30,282 bases of DNA from a virus: positions 1-30,282 of IMG/VR virus record IMGVR_UViG_3300032265_000467. The stretch is one strand, 5' to 3'. The notes beneath the pieces were generated by a model. It was not told the DNA's origin. It saw only the letters and a program-made list of their open reading frames with translations, and searched no databases. Shown here one piece after another: positions 1 through 30,282 of the stretch. Both the position numbers and the translations under genes were made by a program. The number at the start of each line of letters is the position of its first letter. Positions within the stretch are counted from its first letter, which is position 1.

Positions 1-24
1 CCTAACTGAAGCCGCTGATGTTCA
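1..24. repeat. Terminal 24-base direct overlap (contig circularity)
   Basis: Bases 1-24 are identical to bases 30259-30282. The portal reading frame is open through both ends and stays in the same frame when the overlap is collapsed. This is what an assembler leaves when it walks around a circular or circularly permuted molecule. It is an assembly signature, not necessarily a physical terminal repeat of the virion DNA. Confidence 0.9.
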
Positions 25-21852: not shown

Positions 21853-22094
21853 TGTTACCTACCACTGAAAATGAGAAAACTAGCCTAGAAGCACATGTTG
21901 ACCTATGTGCTTTAAGATACCAAGATTTAGACACAAGATTGACCAAATTAGAAGCAAAAATCGACGGAATTGACAAGAAAATTGACAATTTTAAGACGGA
22001 AATTGCCTCTATGTTAATCAAAGCTGGCATGACTATACTAGGCGGCATGTTTACTATTATTTTAGGCCTGTTACGCTATTTGGGACATATATGA
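21852..22094 (+). CDS. Holin-like small membrane protein
   Basis: 80 aa. Residues 10-50 form a charged coiled coil (LDTRLTKLEAKIDGIDKKID), then a single membrane segment at about 52-76 (SMLIKAGMTILGGMFTIILG), with a short basic/aromatic tail. A coiled coil plus one membrane span downstream of the tail genes fits phage holin-like or spanin-like proteins that permeabilise the inner membrane. No endolysin gene is recognised next to it, which weakens the lysis reading. It overlaps the next gene by ATGA. Confidence 0.6.
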   Translation: MLPTTENEKTSLEAHVDLCALRYQDLDTRLTKLEAKIDGIDKKIDNFKTEIASMLIKAGMTILGGMFTIILGLLRYLGHI

Positions 22095-22711
22095 ACCCAC
22101 AGGATCTAATCCGTAGGGTAGATGGAACCCATAGTTGTGTTCCACCACATAAACTGTTAAATCTTTGGAATTTGGTAGGTCAGGCTCCTGAGGGTGATAT
22201 TCTAGAAGTTGGCACTTGGCGTGGAGGCACCGCATTAATGTTGGCCGCCAGCGCACAAATCCATAGACCTAAGGCCAAGGTCTATGTCTGCGACACATTT
22301 AAAGGCATTGCCCTAGCAGGTGCTAAGGACAATTTTCACAAAGATGGAGATTTTGGTGGAGACACTAGCAGTCAATTGGTTCGTGATCTATTGGCCAGCC
22401 AAGGTCTAGACAATTGGTCAGTCCATGAAGGTATCTTTCCTAGAGAAACTGGATCAGAACTAGGGAATGCAGAATTTGGTCTAGTGCACGTGGATGTAGA
22501 TGTTTACCAAGGTCATATGGAAATATTTGCTTGGCTAGAAGGACGTTTGGTTCCTGGTGCTAGGATCGTGTTTGATGACTATGCCAGTCCTACCTGTCAA
22601 GGTGCTACTCTAGCAGTTCATGAATATTTTGACCATAATCCCAATTTCAAATTGGTAATCAATGCTAATCCCGCCCACCACACCTGGGCTGAATATAATC
22701 CAAAACTCTAA
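22091..22711 (+). CDS. SAM-dependent methyltransferase, TylF/MycF-like
   Basis: 206 aa. Class I methyltransferase fold: motif I EVGTWRGG (residues 39-46) binds S-adenosylmethionine, followed by VYVCDTFKG (64-72) with the acidic ribose-binding residue. HVDVDVY (133-139) and IVFDDYASP (159-167) match the Asp pairs that bind Mg in TylF/MycF sugar O-methyltransferases. TCQGATLAVHEYF is the usual C-terminal helix. The family methylates sugar hydroxyls, so the likely substrate is a surface or fibre-linked glycan, but this is inference. It is coupled by ATGA to the holin-like gene and ends the fibre transcript block. The start at 22091 leaves room for a cap before motif I. Confidence 0.8.
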   Translation: MNPQDLIRRVDGTHSCVPPHKLLNLWNLVGQAPEGDILEVGTWRGGTALMLAASAQIHRPKAKVYVCDTFKGIALAGAKDNFHKDGDFGGDTSSQLVRDLLASQGLDNWSVHEGIFPRETGSELGNAEFGLVHVDVDVYQGHMEIFAWLEGRLVPGARIVFDDYASPTCQGATLAVHEYFDHNPNFKLVINANPAHHTWAEYNPKL

Positions 22712-22742: not shown

Positions 22743-23045
22743 ATGAAGAGAAATGCCTTTACAGAAAAACTAGACGCCATCGGCGCTGAATGGATCATAG
22801 ATGTGGAACGAACAATGGAAGTAAAACCTACGGGTCGCAGTAATAAGGGCCGTGGAACAGAACCCTATGAACCCAATCTAACTGGAACTACCATCATTAA
22901 GAAATGGCCCAAAAGCCGAGAATGGTGTAAGGACTGTAATCAATTGGTTGAAAATAAAACACAACAGATTAAGATTACAGATCAAGGACAGGTCATTAAA
23001 TGCTATTGTGGTAAGAAATTCGCTCAAGATAGCCAGAAAACTTGA
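22743..23045 (+). CDS. Small zinc-ribbon-like protein, unknown
   Basis: 100 aa. C62-x2-C65 and C87-x-C89 (WCKDCNQ and KCYCGKKF) form a plausible zinc ribbon in the C-terminal half; the C-x-C second knuckle is unusual. The N-terminal half is charged and basic (GRSNKGRG), suggesting nucleic-acid contact. There is no ribosome binding site: TAAATAC ends four bases before the ATG, so the message may be leaderless. A gene-free structured region follows. Function unknown. Confidence 0.6.
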   Translation: MKRNAFTEKLDAIGAEWIIDVERTMEVKPTGRSNKGRGTEPYEPNLTGTTIIKKWPKSREWCKDCNQLVENKTQQIKITDQGQVIKCYCGKKFAQDSQKT

Positions 23046-23070
23046 CCTCTTTTTAAAATTATGTTTAAAT
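23042..23070 (+). promoter_or_regulatory. Possible promoter for first candidate ncRNA
   Basis: TTGACC (23042-23047), 17-base spacer, TTAAAT (23065-23070). The -35 matches five of six consensus bases, the -10 only four. It overlaps the stop codon of the zinc-ribbon gene and precedes structured RNA that ends in a strong terminator. Confidence 0.35.
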
Positions 23071-23076
23071 ATATTC

Positions 23077-23223
23077 ATAGACAAAAATCTCCTTGATTTA
23101 AATCTATACTGTATTTGGTCACACTCCGCAATGGGGTTGTGCTTCTCAAAGCCATAAGAACTTAGTCATTTTTATAAATCCAAATACAGTTTGAGCCCAC
23201 TATCTACAGTGGGCTCTTTTTTT
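23077..23223 (+). ncRNA. Candidate structured noncoding RNA 1
   Basis: No reading frame with coding character is visible. CTGTATTTGG (23109-23118) and CCAAATACAG (23180-23189) are exact 10-base complements enclosing 61 bases. Inside, CACA/TGTG plus CTCC/GGGG form an imperfect hairpin around GCAAT (23120-23141), and GCTT/AAGC form another small loop. The unit ends in the terminator at 23193-23223. It is too irregular for a tRNA (no T-loop or acceptor of seven pairs plus CCA). Identity unknown; it could also be a long 3' untranslated region. Confidence 0.45.
23193..23223 (+). terminator. Strong rho-independent terminator
   Basis: GAGCCCACT (23193-23201) pairs perfectly with AGTGGGCTC (23208-23216) around ATCTAC, followed by seven T. 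This is the clearest terminator in the genome. It closes the fibre/methyltransferase/zinc-ribbon transcript or candidate ncRNA 1. Confidence 0.92.
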
Positions 23224-23237
23224 GGCTATAAATTCTG

Positions 23238-23269
23238 TTTACAACATGAAAGGATTCGTCTATTATAAA
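23238..23269 (+). promoter_or_regulatory. Sigma70-like promoter for candidate ncRNA 2
   Basis: TTTACA (23238-23243), 17-base spacer, TATTAT (23261-23266); each hexamer matches five of six consensus bases. TATAAATA (23264-23271) overlaps the -10, the same word found at 24075 and 29462. It starts 14 bases after the strong terminator, as an independent transcription unit would. Confidence 0.6.
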
Positions 23270-23272
23270 TAT

Positions 23273-23575
23273 ATGCGACTAAGGCAACTCCATCATGGCA
23301 CAAGTAAATTTCTCTAATTCCGTCTCAAAAGCAATCAGTTCATAAACGAGGGGTAATCCTGATTGGCGCTGTAATTCTACTGTAAGTATTCTTGGATAAA
23401 GTAGATAGCGTGTATGCCCTGTGTAGCCAGCAATGGTTGGAAGTAAGATATAGTCAAACCTCTTCCGGAAAACACACCAAGGACGACCCCCAGAGAGATC
23501 TGGGACTTATCCATAAGTGATATTAGAAGTCGTGGGCAAATGTAGTGAGTAGATATAAAGTCTTAGGGCTTTTTT
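23273..23575 (+). ncRNA. Candidate structured RNA 2 with group I intron-like S element
   Basis: About 300 bases without a convincing gene, running from the promoter to a poly-T hairpin. AAGATATAGTC at 23445-23455, followed by AAACCTCTTCC, matches the conserved S (3' P7) element of group I introns and the ACCTCTCC that follows it in the Tetrahymena intron. A GACTA (23277-23281), complementary to TAGTC, is the only candidate P7 partner upstream. Other stems: CAATCAG/CTGATTG, TCTAC/GTAGA within GCGCT/AGCGT, TGGC/GCCA, CCCAGA-GAGA-TCTGGG with a GNRA loop (23489-23504), ACTTAT-CC-ATAAGT (23505-23518) and ACGAC/GTCGT closing both. Canonical P and Q elements were not found, so an intact group I intron is not shown. 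Confidence 0.45.
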
Positions 23576-23610
23576 AATTTACGGAAACTACATTTGCCCT
23601 CTCACGACTT
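23527..23610. repeat. 20-bp interrupted inverted repeat with 40-base loop
   Basis: AAGTCGTG (23527-23534) and GGCAAATGTAGT (23535-23546) are exact complements of CACGACTT (23603-23610) and ACTACATTTGCC (23587-23598), with only a CTCT bulge on the right arm. The left arm shares GTCGT with the ACGAC/GTCGT stem of the preceding structure, so the two folds exclude each other. Confidence 0.8.
23557..23575 (+). terminator. Weak intrinsic terminator in the loop of the inverted repeat
   Basis: AAAGTC (23557-23562) pairs with GGCTTT (23567-23572) around TTAG, and the T-run extends to 23575. Six pairs including a wobble, so weak by itself. It lies in the 40-base loop of the larger inverted repeat. Confidence 0.5.
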
Positions 23611-23671
23611 TCCATAATATTTCTTTTGAATATGTCTCATAGATATATTAAATGACTGATTCATATTAAAC

Positions 23672-23706
23672 AAATAACATGTAGCGAAGCGGAATGTTAT
23701 TTTTTA
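23672..23706 (+). terminator. Intrinsic terminator before accessory operon
   Basis: AAATAACAT (23672-23680) pairs with ATGTTATTT (23694-23702) around an inner GC-GAA-GC loop, with six T from 23700. It separates the structured RNA region from the accessory genes. The arms are A/T-rich and nearly symmetric, so it may work on both strands. Confidence 0.65.
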
Positions 23707-23714
23707 ATTGAATA

Positions 23715-23752
23715 AGGTCTTGTTAAAGACCTCATTACTTAAAATTAAGGAG
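23715..23752 (+). promoter_or_regulatory. Leader hairpin and ribosome binding site of first accessory gene
   Basis: AGGTCTT (23715-23721) pairs perfectly with AAGACCT (23726-23732) around GTTA. It is followed by AAGGAG (23747-23752), six bases before the ATG at 23759, one of the best ribosome sites in the genome. The hairpin may protect the 5' end of the message. Confidence 0.55.
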
Positions 23753-23758
23753 AAGTAG

Positions 23759-24067
23759 ATGAAAACAAGTATCGCAAAGAAAATAGACTATATCTCAGTA
23801 AATGCTGAATATCTAACAGAAAGTCGTGTATGGAAATTGATAGATGATATCTTTCAAACGCCCCAGGATCTCATAGACACAGTGGATTTCTTTATCTTGA
23901 ATCTCAATAAGAATCATAGTGTAAGTGGTAAGGACTTTAATCAATTAATAGAAATTAGCCAATGGGTTAGTGAACACAGAATTGTTACTTATAAACAAAA
24001 GAGATTAGTAGGTTTAGTTGTAGCACAGTATTGGTCTGATTTAACCCCATTTGATATACTGATATAA
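23759..24067 (+). CDS. Hypothetical protein, first gene of accessory operon
   Basis: 102 aa, helical and slightly acidic, no membrane segment and no recognised domain. Segments such as VWKLIDDIFQTPQDLIDTVD and IVTYKQKRLVGLVVAQYW suggest a compact alpha bundle. AAGGAG six bases upstream and a stable leader hairpin imply strong expression. Its end carries the -35 of a promoter for the next gene. Confidence 0.6.
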   Translation: MKTSIAKKIDYISVNAEYLTESRVWKLIDDIFQTPQDLIDTVDFFILNLNKNHSVSGKDFNQLIEISQWVSEHRIVTYKQKRLVGLVVAQYWSDLTPFDILI

Positions 24068-24086: not shown

Positions 24087-24272
24087 ATGACAAAGAGAAC
24101 TTCTACGGATTGGTCTTATATTGATTGGTTAATAGAACATCCCTTTGAACAAGTATTGGATCAACTACGTTGGAGCGAAGAGATAAGACTTAGACATCTA
24201 CATCGTGAATCAGTAAAACGTAAGATTGAATCCATTAAGTCAGTGAATAAAAGGATTAATAGATATGAGTAA
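24087..24272 (+). CDS. Small basic hypothetical protein
   Basis: 61 aa, aromatic N terminus (STDWSYIDWLIEHPFEQVLD) and a very basic C-terminal helix (RLRHLHRESVKRKIES), compatible with nucleic-acid binding. It lacks a ribosome site but has a well-placed -10 box, so a leaderless mRNA is inferred. It overlaps the start of the HNH-like gene by eight bases. No family recognised. Confidence 0.55.
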   Translation: MTKRTSTDWSYIDWLIEHPFEQVLDQLRWSEEIRLRHLHRESVKRKIESIKSVNKRINRYE

Positions 24273-24687
24273 GAGTCGTCACCCATGGTATCACAAATGG
24301 CGTAATTGGATTGATTACACCTCCAACCCTAATATTGCCACCTATCGCAGTCAAGGTGCTCTAGGCATCAAGGTCGCAAGATATTGGCATGATTTTAATA
24401 CCTTTGTAGAAGATATAGAATGCCTACCTCGAACACCAGGTTGTGATCAATTAACTAGAATTGATCCCTCAAAGGACTATCGCAGAGGTAATATCTGTTG
24501 GGACACACGCAAAGGTTATGCCAATCGCAGAACTGACTGTGTGTATATTCAACATCAAGGTCAACGTATGAATGTAGCACAATGGATTGATCATTTAGGC
24601 ATGAGTCCCAGCACAGTTTATCAAAGACTAGGTCGTGGATGGACACATCTAGAAGCCCTAGAACTTAAACCAAGGAAGACCCCATGA
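24265..24687 (+). CDS. HNH-like homing endonuclease-type protein
   Basis: 140 aa. The layout matches a widespread phage family: an N-terminal W-x-x-W motif with NPN/YRSQGALGIKVARYWHDF, then LTRIDPSKDYRRGNICWDT (compare S-x-D-R-I-D-N-x-x-x-Y-x-P-x-N-C-R-W-A-T), then a C-terminal DNA-binding part MNVAQWIDHLGMSPSTVYQR and LGRGWTHLEAL, the common Gly-Trp-x-x-x-E-A-L ending. These proteins nick or cut DNA and often behave as mobile homing genes. The catalytic His cannot be fixed by eye. AAGGA precedes the ATG; ATGA overlap with the next gene. Confidence 0.65.
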   Translation: MSKSRHPWYHKWRNWIDYTSNPNIATYRSQGALGIKVARYWHDFNTFVEDIECLPRTPGCDQLTRIDPSKDYRRGNICWDTRKGYANRRTDCVYIQHQGQRMNVAQWIDHLGMSPSTVYQRLGRGWTHLEALELKPRKTP

Positions 24688-25701: not shown

Positions 25702-25835
25702 TGAAAGTAAAAGGCGGATATCAATGGGGCAACCACGGCAAGGTATATCCTACTCGCGCACAGGCCGCTAAACAGGCCGCCGCGGCACATGCCAATGGTT
25801 ATAAAGAGCCAATGAAAAAGGATATGAAGAAATGA
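25692..25835 (+). CDS. Small basic conserved-pattern phage protein, 47 aa
   Basis: A 47-codon gene between 25483-25701 and the Dps-like gene, overlapping both (ATGA at its 3' end). The product reads MPIMKVKGGYQWGNHGKVYP then TRAQAAKQAAAAHANGYKEP and a Lys-rich tail. The pattern G-K-x-Y-x-T-R-A-x-A ... A-x-x-x-G-Y-K-E recurs in small phage proteins of unknown role. Tight packing and the ATGA coupling argue that it is real. It could bind DNA through its basic residues. Confidence 0.6.
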   Translation: MPIMKVKGGYQWGNHGKVYPTRAQAAKQAAAAHANGYKEPMKKDMKK

Positions 25836-26278
25836 AAACAGTAGACTCACTTAAAAAACTATTCGCGGATAACTTCGCGGCCTATGTGCTAGCACATGGA
25901 TATCACCAGACAGTAGAAGGCGATGATTTCTATGAATATCACAAGTTGTTTCAAAAGATCTATGAATACCTACAGGATAACATTGATAGCCTAGGCGAAT
26001 TGATCCGTCAGTTAGATGACATTCCTCCATTCAGCTTATCTAGAATTAGTGAACTGTCAGATGTCAAAGATGTTCAAGAAGCCCCTGATACACTGACCAA
26101 AGTTCTTGATCTAGATTCAGCACTCTACATGTTGATTGAACAGGCCAGCACAGTCTTTGAAGACAGCAACGCAGACAAGGAATATGGAGTCAATAATTTT
26201 GTTGGTGGTTATATACAGGATCTAAATAAATTCTGCTGGTTCTTAAAGGCCAGTTCAGTGATGTCAAAGGATCTTTAA
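25832..26278 (+). CDS. Dps/ferritin-like protein
   Basis: 148 aa, close to the usual Dps length. The Dps iron-site pattern is present: AHGYHQTVEGDDFYEYH gives His25 and His37, equal to the two ferroxidase His residues (H51 and H63 of E. coli Dps). NIDSLGELIRQL gives Asp52 and Glu56, equal to D78 and E82. The position equal to Asp67 is Gln41, a substitution. Family members form dodecamers that oxidise and store iron and may coat DNA, protecting it from oxidants. No basic N-terminal tail is present, so DNA binding may be weak. It is coupled to both neighbours by overlap. A phage copy may protect infected cells or virion DNA; that is inference. Confidence 0.8.
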   Translation: MKTVDSLKKLFADNFAAYVLAHGYHQTVEGDDFYEYHKLFQKIYEYLQDNIDSLGELIRQLDDIPPFSLSRISELSDVKDVQEAPDTLTKVLDLDSALYMLIEQASTVFEDSNADKEYGVNNFVGGYIQDLNKFCWFLKASSVMSKDL

Positions 26279-27363: not shown

Positions 27364-27366
27364 GTA

Positions 27367-27429
27367 TTCATGTGGACCAGGGTTCTCCAACCCAATGAAC
27401 ACTCCGGAGGTAGTGTGGTCAAAACCTCC
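27367..27429 (+). other. Structured element with competing stems
   Basis: GGGTT (27380-27384) pairs with AACCC (27389-27393), inside TTCAT (27367-27371) with ATGAA (27395-27399). ACACT (27399-27403) pairs with AGTGT (27412-27416). GACCA (27375-27379) can pair with TGGTC (27416-27420), and GGAGGT (27406-27411) with ACCTCC (27424-27429). Not all can form together, so the element could switch or form a pseudoknot. It has no T-run. Function unknown; a regulatory 3' element, a small RNA or part of a packaging site are options. Confidence 0.45.
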
Positions 27430-27436
27430 AAACTGA

Positions 27437-27464
27437 TTGACCTAGATCTTAGAGACTGTATAAT
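27437..27464 (+). promoter_or_regulatory. Near-consensus sigma70 promoter
   Basis: TTGACC (27437-27442), 16-base spacer, exact TATAAT (27459-27464). This is the best promoter in the window. Expected start is near 27471, only about 57 bases before an intrinsic terminator. Confidence 0.78.
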
Positions 27465-27470
27465 AAACAA

Positions 27471-27555
27471 GTAGGACGGGTGTTCTACATACTGGTATAA
27501 ATCCTAGTCTCCTAGGCTAGTGTTTAGAAAGGGTTATAGAGATATAACCTTTTCT
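27471..27555 (+). ncRNA. Candidate small RNA (about 85 nt) upstream of terminase
   Basis: Between promoter and terminator the sequence folds into GTAGGAC/GTTCTAC (27471-27488, loop GGGT) and a second stem ACTGG/CTAGT (27491-27495 with 27517-27521) holding CCTAG-TCTC-CTAGG (27503-27516). The terminator hairpin is the third stem. No start codon with a good frame is present, so a noncoding RNA or a leader/attenuator of the terminase operon is likely. The rest of the gap, 27556-27669, shows no clear gene. Confidence 0.55.
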
Positions 27556-27557
27556 TT
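27528..27557 (+). terminator. Intrinsic terminator ending the small RNA
   Basis: AAAGGGTTATA (27528-27538) pairs with TATAACCTTTT (27543-27553) around a GAGA tetraloop, 11 pairs, followed by CTTTT. It lies downstream of the strong promoter and upstream of the terminase genes, so it must be passed, or another promoter used, to express terminase. Confidence 0.82.
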
Positions 27558-27669
27558 TATCTAAATATTCAGCAGAGGCGTTAACGAGTCCAGAGAGGAT
27601 GCCAGTGACAAGATTTTACTCGTTTCTCCACTAATAAGCCCAATCTCTCCTCTGCCCTGTAAATACAGG

Positions 27670-28002
27670 ATGGAACTTGAAAAACAATCAAGTGGACATG
27701 GTGGACTACGTGAAAATTCAGGTAGAAAATTAGGTTCCACACAAAAATTATCAGCCAAAGAAATACTAGCCGCTATCACGCAGGCTAATAATGGAATACC
27801 TTATGAAGTTGCCTTGGCCAATGATTTTATAGCGGCCCGCTATGGTGATGATAAACATCTAGTGGCCAAGTATCATCAATTAATCCTATCTAAGGTCATT
27901 GCCGACAAGGTTGATATTACCTCAAATGGTCAAAGTATCGCACCTACACTACAGTTCGGCCGCAGTGAACTACCTGATTATATAGATGTCAAACCAACAT
28001 AA
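27670..28002 (+). CDS. Terminase small subunit candidate
   Basis: 110 aa. The N terminus carries HGGLRENSGRKLGS (residues 10-23), the pattern GGxRxNxGRxxGS typical of phage small terminases and other packaging/DNA-binding proteins. A helical region (EILAAITQANNGIPYEVALA) and a basic/acidic tail follow. It overlaps the large terminase gene, the usual arrangement. The protein recognises the packaging site and loads the large subunit. No ribosome site; TAAATAC ends three bases before the ATG inside a short palindrome (CTGTAAATACAG), so a leaderless start is possible. Confidence 0.62.
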   Translation: MELEKQSSGHGGLRENSGRKLGSTQKLSAKEILAAITQANNGIPYEVALANDFIAARYGDDKHLVAKYHQLILSKVIADKVDITSNGQSIAPTLQFGRSELPDYIDVKPT

Positions 28003-29503: not shown

Positions 29504-30282
29504 ATGAGTTTAACGGTAAGAGATTTACTGGCTCCTTCCAATCTAATGCGAACTATTTCGCCACAGATGGAAGCATACAGAGCCGCTTATGAAGGTGGAC
29601 AGGGGTTTAAGAACTCTGTCCTTATTAAGAAGCCCTCTGAAGATGCCGCACTCTTTCGCGACAAATTACTCAATGTGGCCGCAATGCCTATCTGTAAGGC
29701 CATTGTAGAAGAAATCACTGATGTGGTCTATGAAAGTGAACCTATTCGTCATCCTGCTTTCTTAACTAAAAATAATGCTGATGCTGGTATTCCAGATTGG
29801 TATAAGAGTTTTGAAAATGATGCTGACTTCAATGGCAATGATTTTACAGCAGTCATGGAACAGGTGGCCTTAATGGCGGGCATTGAAGGCTGGGCATGGG
29901 TTTGGGTAGATCTACCTGAAGTTGCTCGTCCAGGCAATCGTCCTTATATTTCAGCCTGTTCAGCAGAGCATGTGATTGATTGGATAGTGTTTACAGAATG
30001 TGGTCGTGATTATCTACAGTTCCTTAAGGTTGTTGAATACCAAGACGCTAAGGAAACTGTGATCAAACTATGGTATGCTGGTGATGCCCTAAATCCAACC
30101 TACTGTGAAAAATATATTGTCACAGAAGATCATTTCAAGGCCATGGATGAACCCATTGACCCAATTGAAACCTATACCCTAGGCCCAGGACTACCTATTC
30201 CTGTTATTCAGGTTATCGCTCGTCCTGATCAACGTAGACGTGACCTAGGAGTCAGTGACCTAACTGAAGCCGCTGATGTTCA
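29504..30282 (+). CDS. Phage portal protein, N-terminal part
   Basis: Starts MSLTVRDLLAPSNLMRTISP and continues QMEAYRAAYEGGQGFKN, then PSEDAALFRDKLLNVAAMPI and an IVEEITDVVYESEP segment. This order (a Tyr/Gly patch, a loop with Pro-Ser-Glu-Asp, helices leading to I-V-x-x-I-x-x-x-V-Y/F) is typical of phage portals of the DUF4055-like kind. The frame is open to the window edge and continues at base 2 after collapsing the 24-base overlap, giving 502 aa. AGGA 10 bases before the ATG. It follows the large terminase, as expected for the packaging module. Confidence 0.88.
   Translation, partial: MSLTVRDLLAPSNLMRTISPQMEAYRAAYEGGQGFKNSVLIKKPSEDAALFRDKLLNVAAMPICKAIVEEITDVVYESEPIRHPAFLTKNNADAGIPDWYKSFENDADFNGNDFTAVMEQVALMAGIEGWAWVWVDLPEVARPGNRPYISACSAEHVIDWIVFTECGRDYLQFLKVVEYQDAKETVIKLWYAGDALNPTYCEKYIVTEDHFKAMDEPIDPIETYTLGPGLPIPVIQVIARPDQRRRDLGVSDLTEAADV

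What the first reader, a model, noticed from the sequence alone, without database searches (positions are those of the whole stretch)
23273..23575. Structured RNA with a group I intron S-like element
AAGATATAGTC plus AAACCTCTTCC closely matches the S (3' P7) element and following bases of group I introns. The GNRA hairpin and paired stems just downstream fit the P9 region. GACTA at 23277 could be the P7 partner, and CAACTCC (23285-23291) directly after it could pair with GGGGTTG (23133-23139) in P3 topology, but a strong terminator lies between these arms and canonical P/Q elements are not seen. It is either a degenerate intron, an intron-derived RNA, or a new RNA that resembles one.
Basis: partly seen in the sequence, partly recalled or inferred. 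Interest (0 to 1): 0.68.

Follow-up and report, generated by a model that had tools for sequence, protein, structure and literature searches.

The report
Conserved structured phage RNA, not an intron
This stretch of an uncultivated phage genome encodes a strongly conserved, elaborately folded RNA with its own promoter; it carries short sequences that look like pieces of a self-splicing group I intron, but it lacks the parts that would make it one, so it is best read as a new phage RNA of unknown job.

Summary
The defining parts of a group I intron are absent. No R strand lies between Q and S; the proposed P7 partner (GACTA, 23277) is CACTA in the only homologue, and the proposed P3 helix breaks there too. 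A covariance model built from 11 genuine phage introns scores this locus 3.9 bits (S only), against 19-113 bits for introns not used to build it. Sequence around the two words is no more intron-like than shuffles. No gene is interrupted.

What is there is a conserved structured RNA. In a related phage contig, bases 23318-23500 are 96.7% identical, while nine compared genes are 51-79% identical. Five base pairs change on both sides and stay paired; the fold is far more stable than shuffles (z = -5.0 and -6.3). A sigma-70-like promoter (23238-23266) follows the preceding operon's terminator. The RNA would run from about 23273 to about 23705, or into the ORF at 23759. No Rfam family matches, and only one homologue was found. 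It probably acts as a folded RNA, in trans or as an operon leader; the tools could not separate these.

The parts
23238..23266 (+). Promoter-like site: TTTACA, 17 nt, TATTAT; expected transcription start about 23273
   Evidence: 10 of 12 consensus matches; counterpart TTTACA-16-TAAACT at the same place in L047 3068-3095. Consensus match only, not evidence of function.
23273..23705 (+). Predicted structured non-coding RNA (about 430 nt); ends are inferred
   Evidence: Folds better than 100 shuffles, z -5.0 for 23273-23760 and -6.3 in the homologue; 125 consensus pairs, 5 with changes on both sides, none broken
23318..23500 (+). Core block, most conserved part
   Evidence: 96.7% identical to L047 over 183 gap-free bases; nine compared genes 50.9-79.1%
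23350..23490 (+). Compact core domain closed by GGGGU-AA-UCCU (23350-23360) with AGGA-CG-ACCCC (23480-23490)
   Evidence: Minimum free energy fold of 23345-23506, -40.7 kcal/mol; a competing helix GGGGUA/UGCCCU is seen in longer folds. The pairs do not vary, so covariation does not decide.
23352..23363 (+). Q-like word GGTAATCCTGAT
   Evidence: Exact match to the Q region of genuine phage introns such as L090, L107, L111, L123; 0 mismatches here, other window matches have 2
23376..23405 (+). Hairpin UCUACU/AGUAGA with an 18-nt invariant loop
   Evidence: Compensatory change U-A to A-U at 23381/23400 in L035
23425..23438 (+). Hairpin AGCCA-GCAA-UGGUU with a GNRA-type loop
   Evidence: Predicted in all folds; invariant
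23439..23466 (+). Hairpin GGAAG/CUUCC whose 18-nt loop holds the S-like AAGATATAGTC (23445-23455)
   Evidence: invariant in both phages
23489..23504 (+). Hairpin CCCAGA-GAGA-UCUGGG
   Evidence: A-U to G-C on both sides and G-C to G-U in L035
23528..23609 (+). Long hairpin, lower stem AGUCGUGGG/CUCACGACU and upper stem GCAAAUGUAGU/ACUACAUUUGC
   Evidence: U-A to A-U on both sides plus one-sided changes that keep pairing; L035 lacks 17 nt of the apical loop
23672..23706 (+). A+T-rich hairpin AAAUAACA/UGUUAUUU followed by a T run; possible 3' end
   Evidence: Inverted repeat I10; too A+T-rich for the terminator scan, and the T run is interrupted in L035, so termination here is uncertain
23759..24067 (+). 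Intact ORF of 102 aa downstream, ribosome-binding-site-like AAGGAG at 23747-23752; no known family
   Evidence: 54% identical in L035

Best explanation
The locus encodes a conserved, non-coding, highly structured phage RNA of about 430 nt that is not a group I intron. Shown by sequence comparison: a core conserved beyond any compared gene, helices kept by compensatory changes, and lack of the P3/P7 ribozyme core. Inferred: it is transcribed from the promoter at 23238-23266, just after the terminator of the upstream operon, so it would be the first product of the downstream, probably early, operon; it folds into a compact core (23350-23490) plus a long hairpin and may end near 23705. I judge that it most likely acts as a folded RNA in trans, by binding a phage or host factor (about 0.5); acting in cis as leader of the following genes is the main alternative (about 0.35). 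The exposed S-like 18-nt loop is a candidate contact site (inference only).
For: Core 96.7% identical between two phages whose genes are 51-79% identical. Five pairs changed on both sides, none broken, sliding controls give 0-1. Fold z -5.0 and -6.3. Promoter-like site right after a strong terminator, with a counterpart in the relative. No coding signal: stops in most frames and no synonymous excess. Not an intron by two covariance models.
Against: Only one homologue, so covariation is thin and the structure was derived from the same two sequences. No expression data. The core alone folds no better than shuffles (z -0.3). Recent exchange could contribute to the high identity. The proposed 3' end is weak.
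Confidence: 0.62

Rival explanations
1. Cis-acting leader: the structured RNA is the 5' leader of the operon that starts at 23759 and controls read-through or translation (attenuation, anti-termination), with two conserved competing partners for AAUCAG (23333-23338).
For: Promoter just upstream and intact ORF with ribosome-binding site just downstream. AAUCAG can pair with CUGAUUG (23359-23365) or with CUGAUU (23656-23661) in both phages. The terminator near 23705 is weak, so read-through is plausible.
Against: Conservation is far higher than usual for a leader and centred 250-440 nt upstream of the start codon. No switching evidence beyond the alternative pairings. The short ORF inside (23295-23345) shows only amino-acid-changing differences.
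Confidence: 0.3
2. Intron-derived RNA: a former group I intron that lost R/P7, P3 and its exons and was kept for another role.
For: Q-like 12-mer and S-like 11-mer in the right order, 81 nt apart; genuine phage introns have 70-100 nt between the same words. GGAAGTAAGATATAGTC is shared exactly with a true intron. P4-like pairing CAAUCAG/CUGAUUG is possible.
Against: Sequence before, between and after the words is no closer to introns than shuffles (p 0.37, 0.13, 0.72), unlike true introns. The intron model scores 3.9 bits. The best core fold uses the Q-like and S-like bases in other helices and loops. Several coding sequences also match the two-word pattern by chance.
Confidence: 0.1
3. DNA element (replication origin or packaging site) conserved as DNA, or a recently exchanged segment.
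For: Long non-coding stretch with inverted repeats at a boundary of transcription units; high identity could come from recent exchange.
Against: Changes in helices are compensated, including G-U wobbles that make sense for RNA. Promoter and hairpins are arranged as a transcript. No switch in cumulative GC skew at the locus.
Confidence: 0.06
4. An active group I intron.
Against: No R/P7, no conserved P3, no interrupted gene, no gathering-level hit.
Confidence: 0.01

Closest known systems
Homologous region of IMG/VR contig IMGVR_UViG_3300032236_000480 (L035/L047)
   Same: Same gene neighbourhood, promoter position, core and helices
   Different: 17 nt missing from the apical loop of the long hairpin; compensatory substitutions
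Group I catalytic intron (Rfam RF00028), phage members such as L090, L107, L088
   Same: Q-like GGTAATCCTGAT and S-like AAGATATAGTC in order and spacing; GNRA hairpins
   Different: No R/P7 strand, no P3, no exons, no model score
GOLLD and ROOL RNAs of phages and prophages (PMC12286853)
   Same: Large, elaborately folded phage-encoded non-coding RNAs without known function
   Different: No Rfam match; smaller; no tRNA in the window; no multimer evidence

Membership tests
Group I intron | R pairs with S to form P7, the guanosine-binding helix (PMC3984707) | tested here: not met
   No GACTA-like strand between Q and S; GACTA at 23277 is CACTA in L035 while S is unchanged
Group I intron | P3 helix of the core | tested here: not met
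   GGGGTTG/CAACTCC (23133/23285) loses two pairs in L035 and is split by a strong terminator
Group I intron | P pairs with Q to form P4 | tested here: inconclusive
   CAAUCAG/CUGAUUG (23332-23338/23359-23365) can form but never varies and competes with other helices
Group I intron | Score against the family's covariance model | tested here: not met
   RF00028: none at gathering level, 12.6 of 50 bits relaxed; own model of phage introns 3.9 bits against 19-113 for introns not used to build it
Group I intron | Interrupts a gene; exons are joined by splicing | tested here: not met
   Lies between an ORF that ends at 23045 and an intact ORF that starts at 23759, in both phages. Splicing itself is not testable here.
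GOLLD, ROOL and other Rfam structured RNAs | Match to the Rfam model | tested here: not met
   No match to these families even at E up to 10 on 23040-23760
Large structured phage non-coding RNA (general kind) | Conserved structure supported by compensatory changes, no coding | tested here: met
   based on two sequences only
Large structured phage non-coding RNA (general kind) | Expressed as RNA | not testable with these tools
   Only a promoter-like site

The most novel reading that the evidence does not exclude
A new family of phage regulatory RNA, either descended from a group I intron that lost its catalytic core and was kept for a new role, or a new RNA that converged on Q- and S-like words, made early in infection and acting in trans.
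Probability: 0.15. Interest if true: 0.75.

Novelty: new variant of a known kind. Interest (0 to 1): 0.42.

Why it matters
An RNA kept more strictly than any of nine compared genes of its phage probably does something important during infection, yet it matches no known family. If it descended from an intron, it would be a concrete case of a splicing ribozyme turned to another use. If not, it is a warning that Q and S words alone do not make a group I intron.

Tried and rejected
(1) Group I intron by Rfam and by a model from 11 phage introns: rejected. The weak Rfam match (12.6 bits) vanished when the stretch was cut to 23189-23480. (2) Circularly permuted intron: rejected, because no circular permutation puts Q before S without R between them. 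(3) Protein-coding: a minus-strand frame is open over the core in both phages, but has no Pfam match, no phage homologue and no synonymous excess. (4) A 16-codon ORF at 23295-23345: frame kept, but 4 amino-acid changes and no synonymous one. (5) More homologues: eight scans of viral contigs, two of GTDB genomes, phage and plasmid BLAST, and 28 related virus records gave only L035/L047. Hits L130-L133 and L134-L146 share only the searched word. (6) Pairing of the S loop with codons 10-13 of the next ORF: a 10-nt perfect complement in the window shrinks to 6 pairs in L035; not pursued. (7) Literature on permuted group I introns in phages and on put-type antiterminator RNAs gave nothing usable.

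Full report
Setting. The window is a phage record of 30,282 bases with a 24-base direct repeat at its ends, so it is probably a complete circular map; the portal gene runs over the join. Terminase, portal, head and tape-measure genes are recognisable, but the terminase matches listed among cultured phages are only about 25% identical. The finding lies in a 713-base gap between an ORF ending at 23045 and one starting at 23759.

The observation. AAGATATAGTC by itself is not very surprising in 30 kb: with one mismatch allowed there are 2 matches, 0.76 expected. The hits include about 14 loci that look like genuine phage group I introns, several with the same 12-mer GGTAATCCTGAT as the window at 23352-23363. 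They also include about six unrelated coding families, so the pattern is not proof. Two of the intron loci, checked against Rfam, score 62-90 bits with RF00028.

Is it a group I intron? The family is defined by P pairing with Q (P4) and R pairing with S (P7, the guanosine site), with the P3/P8 helices in the core (PMC3984707). Between Q and S in the window there is no R-like strand. The proposed upstream partner GACTA becomes CACTA in the homologue while S is unchanged, and the proposed P3 arms lose two pairs there. Rfam gives no hit at gathering level anywhere in the window. At relaxed thresholds it gives 12.6 bits against a cut-off of 50, and that match disappears in shorter stretches. A model built from 11 phage introns gives 3.9 bits at S only, while introns not used in building it score 19-113 bits. 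Apart from the two words, the sequence upstream, between and downstream is no closer to introns than its own shuffles (p = 0.37, 0.13, 0.72 on mean scores); for five true introns the region between Q and S gives z = 2.3-10.1. No circular permutation can place Q before S without R between them. No gene is interrupted. I therefore reject membership; descent from an intron remains possible but unsupported.

What is conserved. One related phage contig (L035/L047, terminase 78% identical) carries the same region in the same place. Bases 23318-23500 are 96.7% identical with no gap, while nine genes range from 51% to 79%. The changes at 23381/23400, 23492/23501 and 23500 all keep base pairs. RNAalifold on the two sequences gives 125 pairs, none broken, five changed on both sides; sliding the partners leaves 0-1 such pairs. 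The structure was derived from these same two sequences, so this is support and not proof. The whole RNA folds far better than shuffles (z = -5.0 and -6.3); the core alone does not (z = -0.3). The best fold of the core is compact, closed by GGGGU-AA-UCCU with AGGA-CG-ACCCC, and puts the S-like word in the 18-nt loop of a GGAAG/CUUCC hairpin.

How it may work. A strong terminator at 23193-23223 ends the upstream genes and a promoter-like site follows at 23238-23266, with a counterpart at the same place in the relative. The RNA is thus probably the first product of the transcription unit that continues into small ORFs and HNH genes. Whether it ends near 23705, at an A+T-rich hairpin with a T run, or reads into the ORF at 23759 cannot be decided here. 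The strict conservation of a core with no coding signal suggests that the folded RNA itself is recognised by something. I put trans action at about 0.5 and a cis leader at about 0.35; both are inference.

Comparison with the known. GOLLD and ROOL are large structured RNAs of phages, also without known function, often near tRNA islands (PMC12286853). This RNA shares that general character, but no model match, and no tRNA lies in the window. I file it as a new, small family of the known kind 'structured phage RNA', with only two members seen.

Noticed in passing
window 1-24 and 30259-30282: 24-base direct repeat at the two ends; the record is probably a closed circular map of about 30,258 bp, and the portal gene spans the join.
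   Followed up: yes
window 23108-23223: A second structured element upstream: an 11-bp stem ACTGTATTTGG/CCAAATACAGT, kept in L035, encloses a small hairpin and is followed by a strong terminator; fold z -5.3.
   Followed up: partly
window 23088-23102 and 23739-23753: TCTCCTTGATTTAAA is complementary to TTAAAATTAAGGAGA, which holds the ribosome-binding-site-like AAGGAG of the ORF at 23759; a similar pairing can form in L035.
   Followed up: no
window 23786-23795: GACTATATCT inside codons 10-13 of the next ORF is a perfect 10-nt complement of the S-like loop; in L035 only GATTAT remains.
   Followed up: partly
window 25832-26278: Phage-encoded ferritin-like, Dps-related protein (Pfam PF00210, E 3e-14), also in the related phage at L035 4817-5350.
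   Followed up: no
window 24265-24687: Small HNH endonuclease gene (phrog_3377) shortly downstream of the RNA; a diverged copy (30% identical) sits in the same place in L035.
   Followed up: no
window 22091-22711: TylF-type methyltransferase gene near the end of the upstream operon (Pfam PF05711).
   Followed up: no
window 27364-27670: A second gap with a promoter-like site (27437-27464) and terminator-like hairpins (27503-27555) upstream of the terminase genes; possibly the start of the late operon.
   Followed up: no
L088 7763-9263 and 10562-10754; L093; L089: Viral contigs with several group I introns each, some below Rfam's cut-off (27-48 bits) but clear with a phage-specific model.
   Followed up: partly
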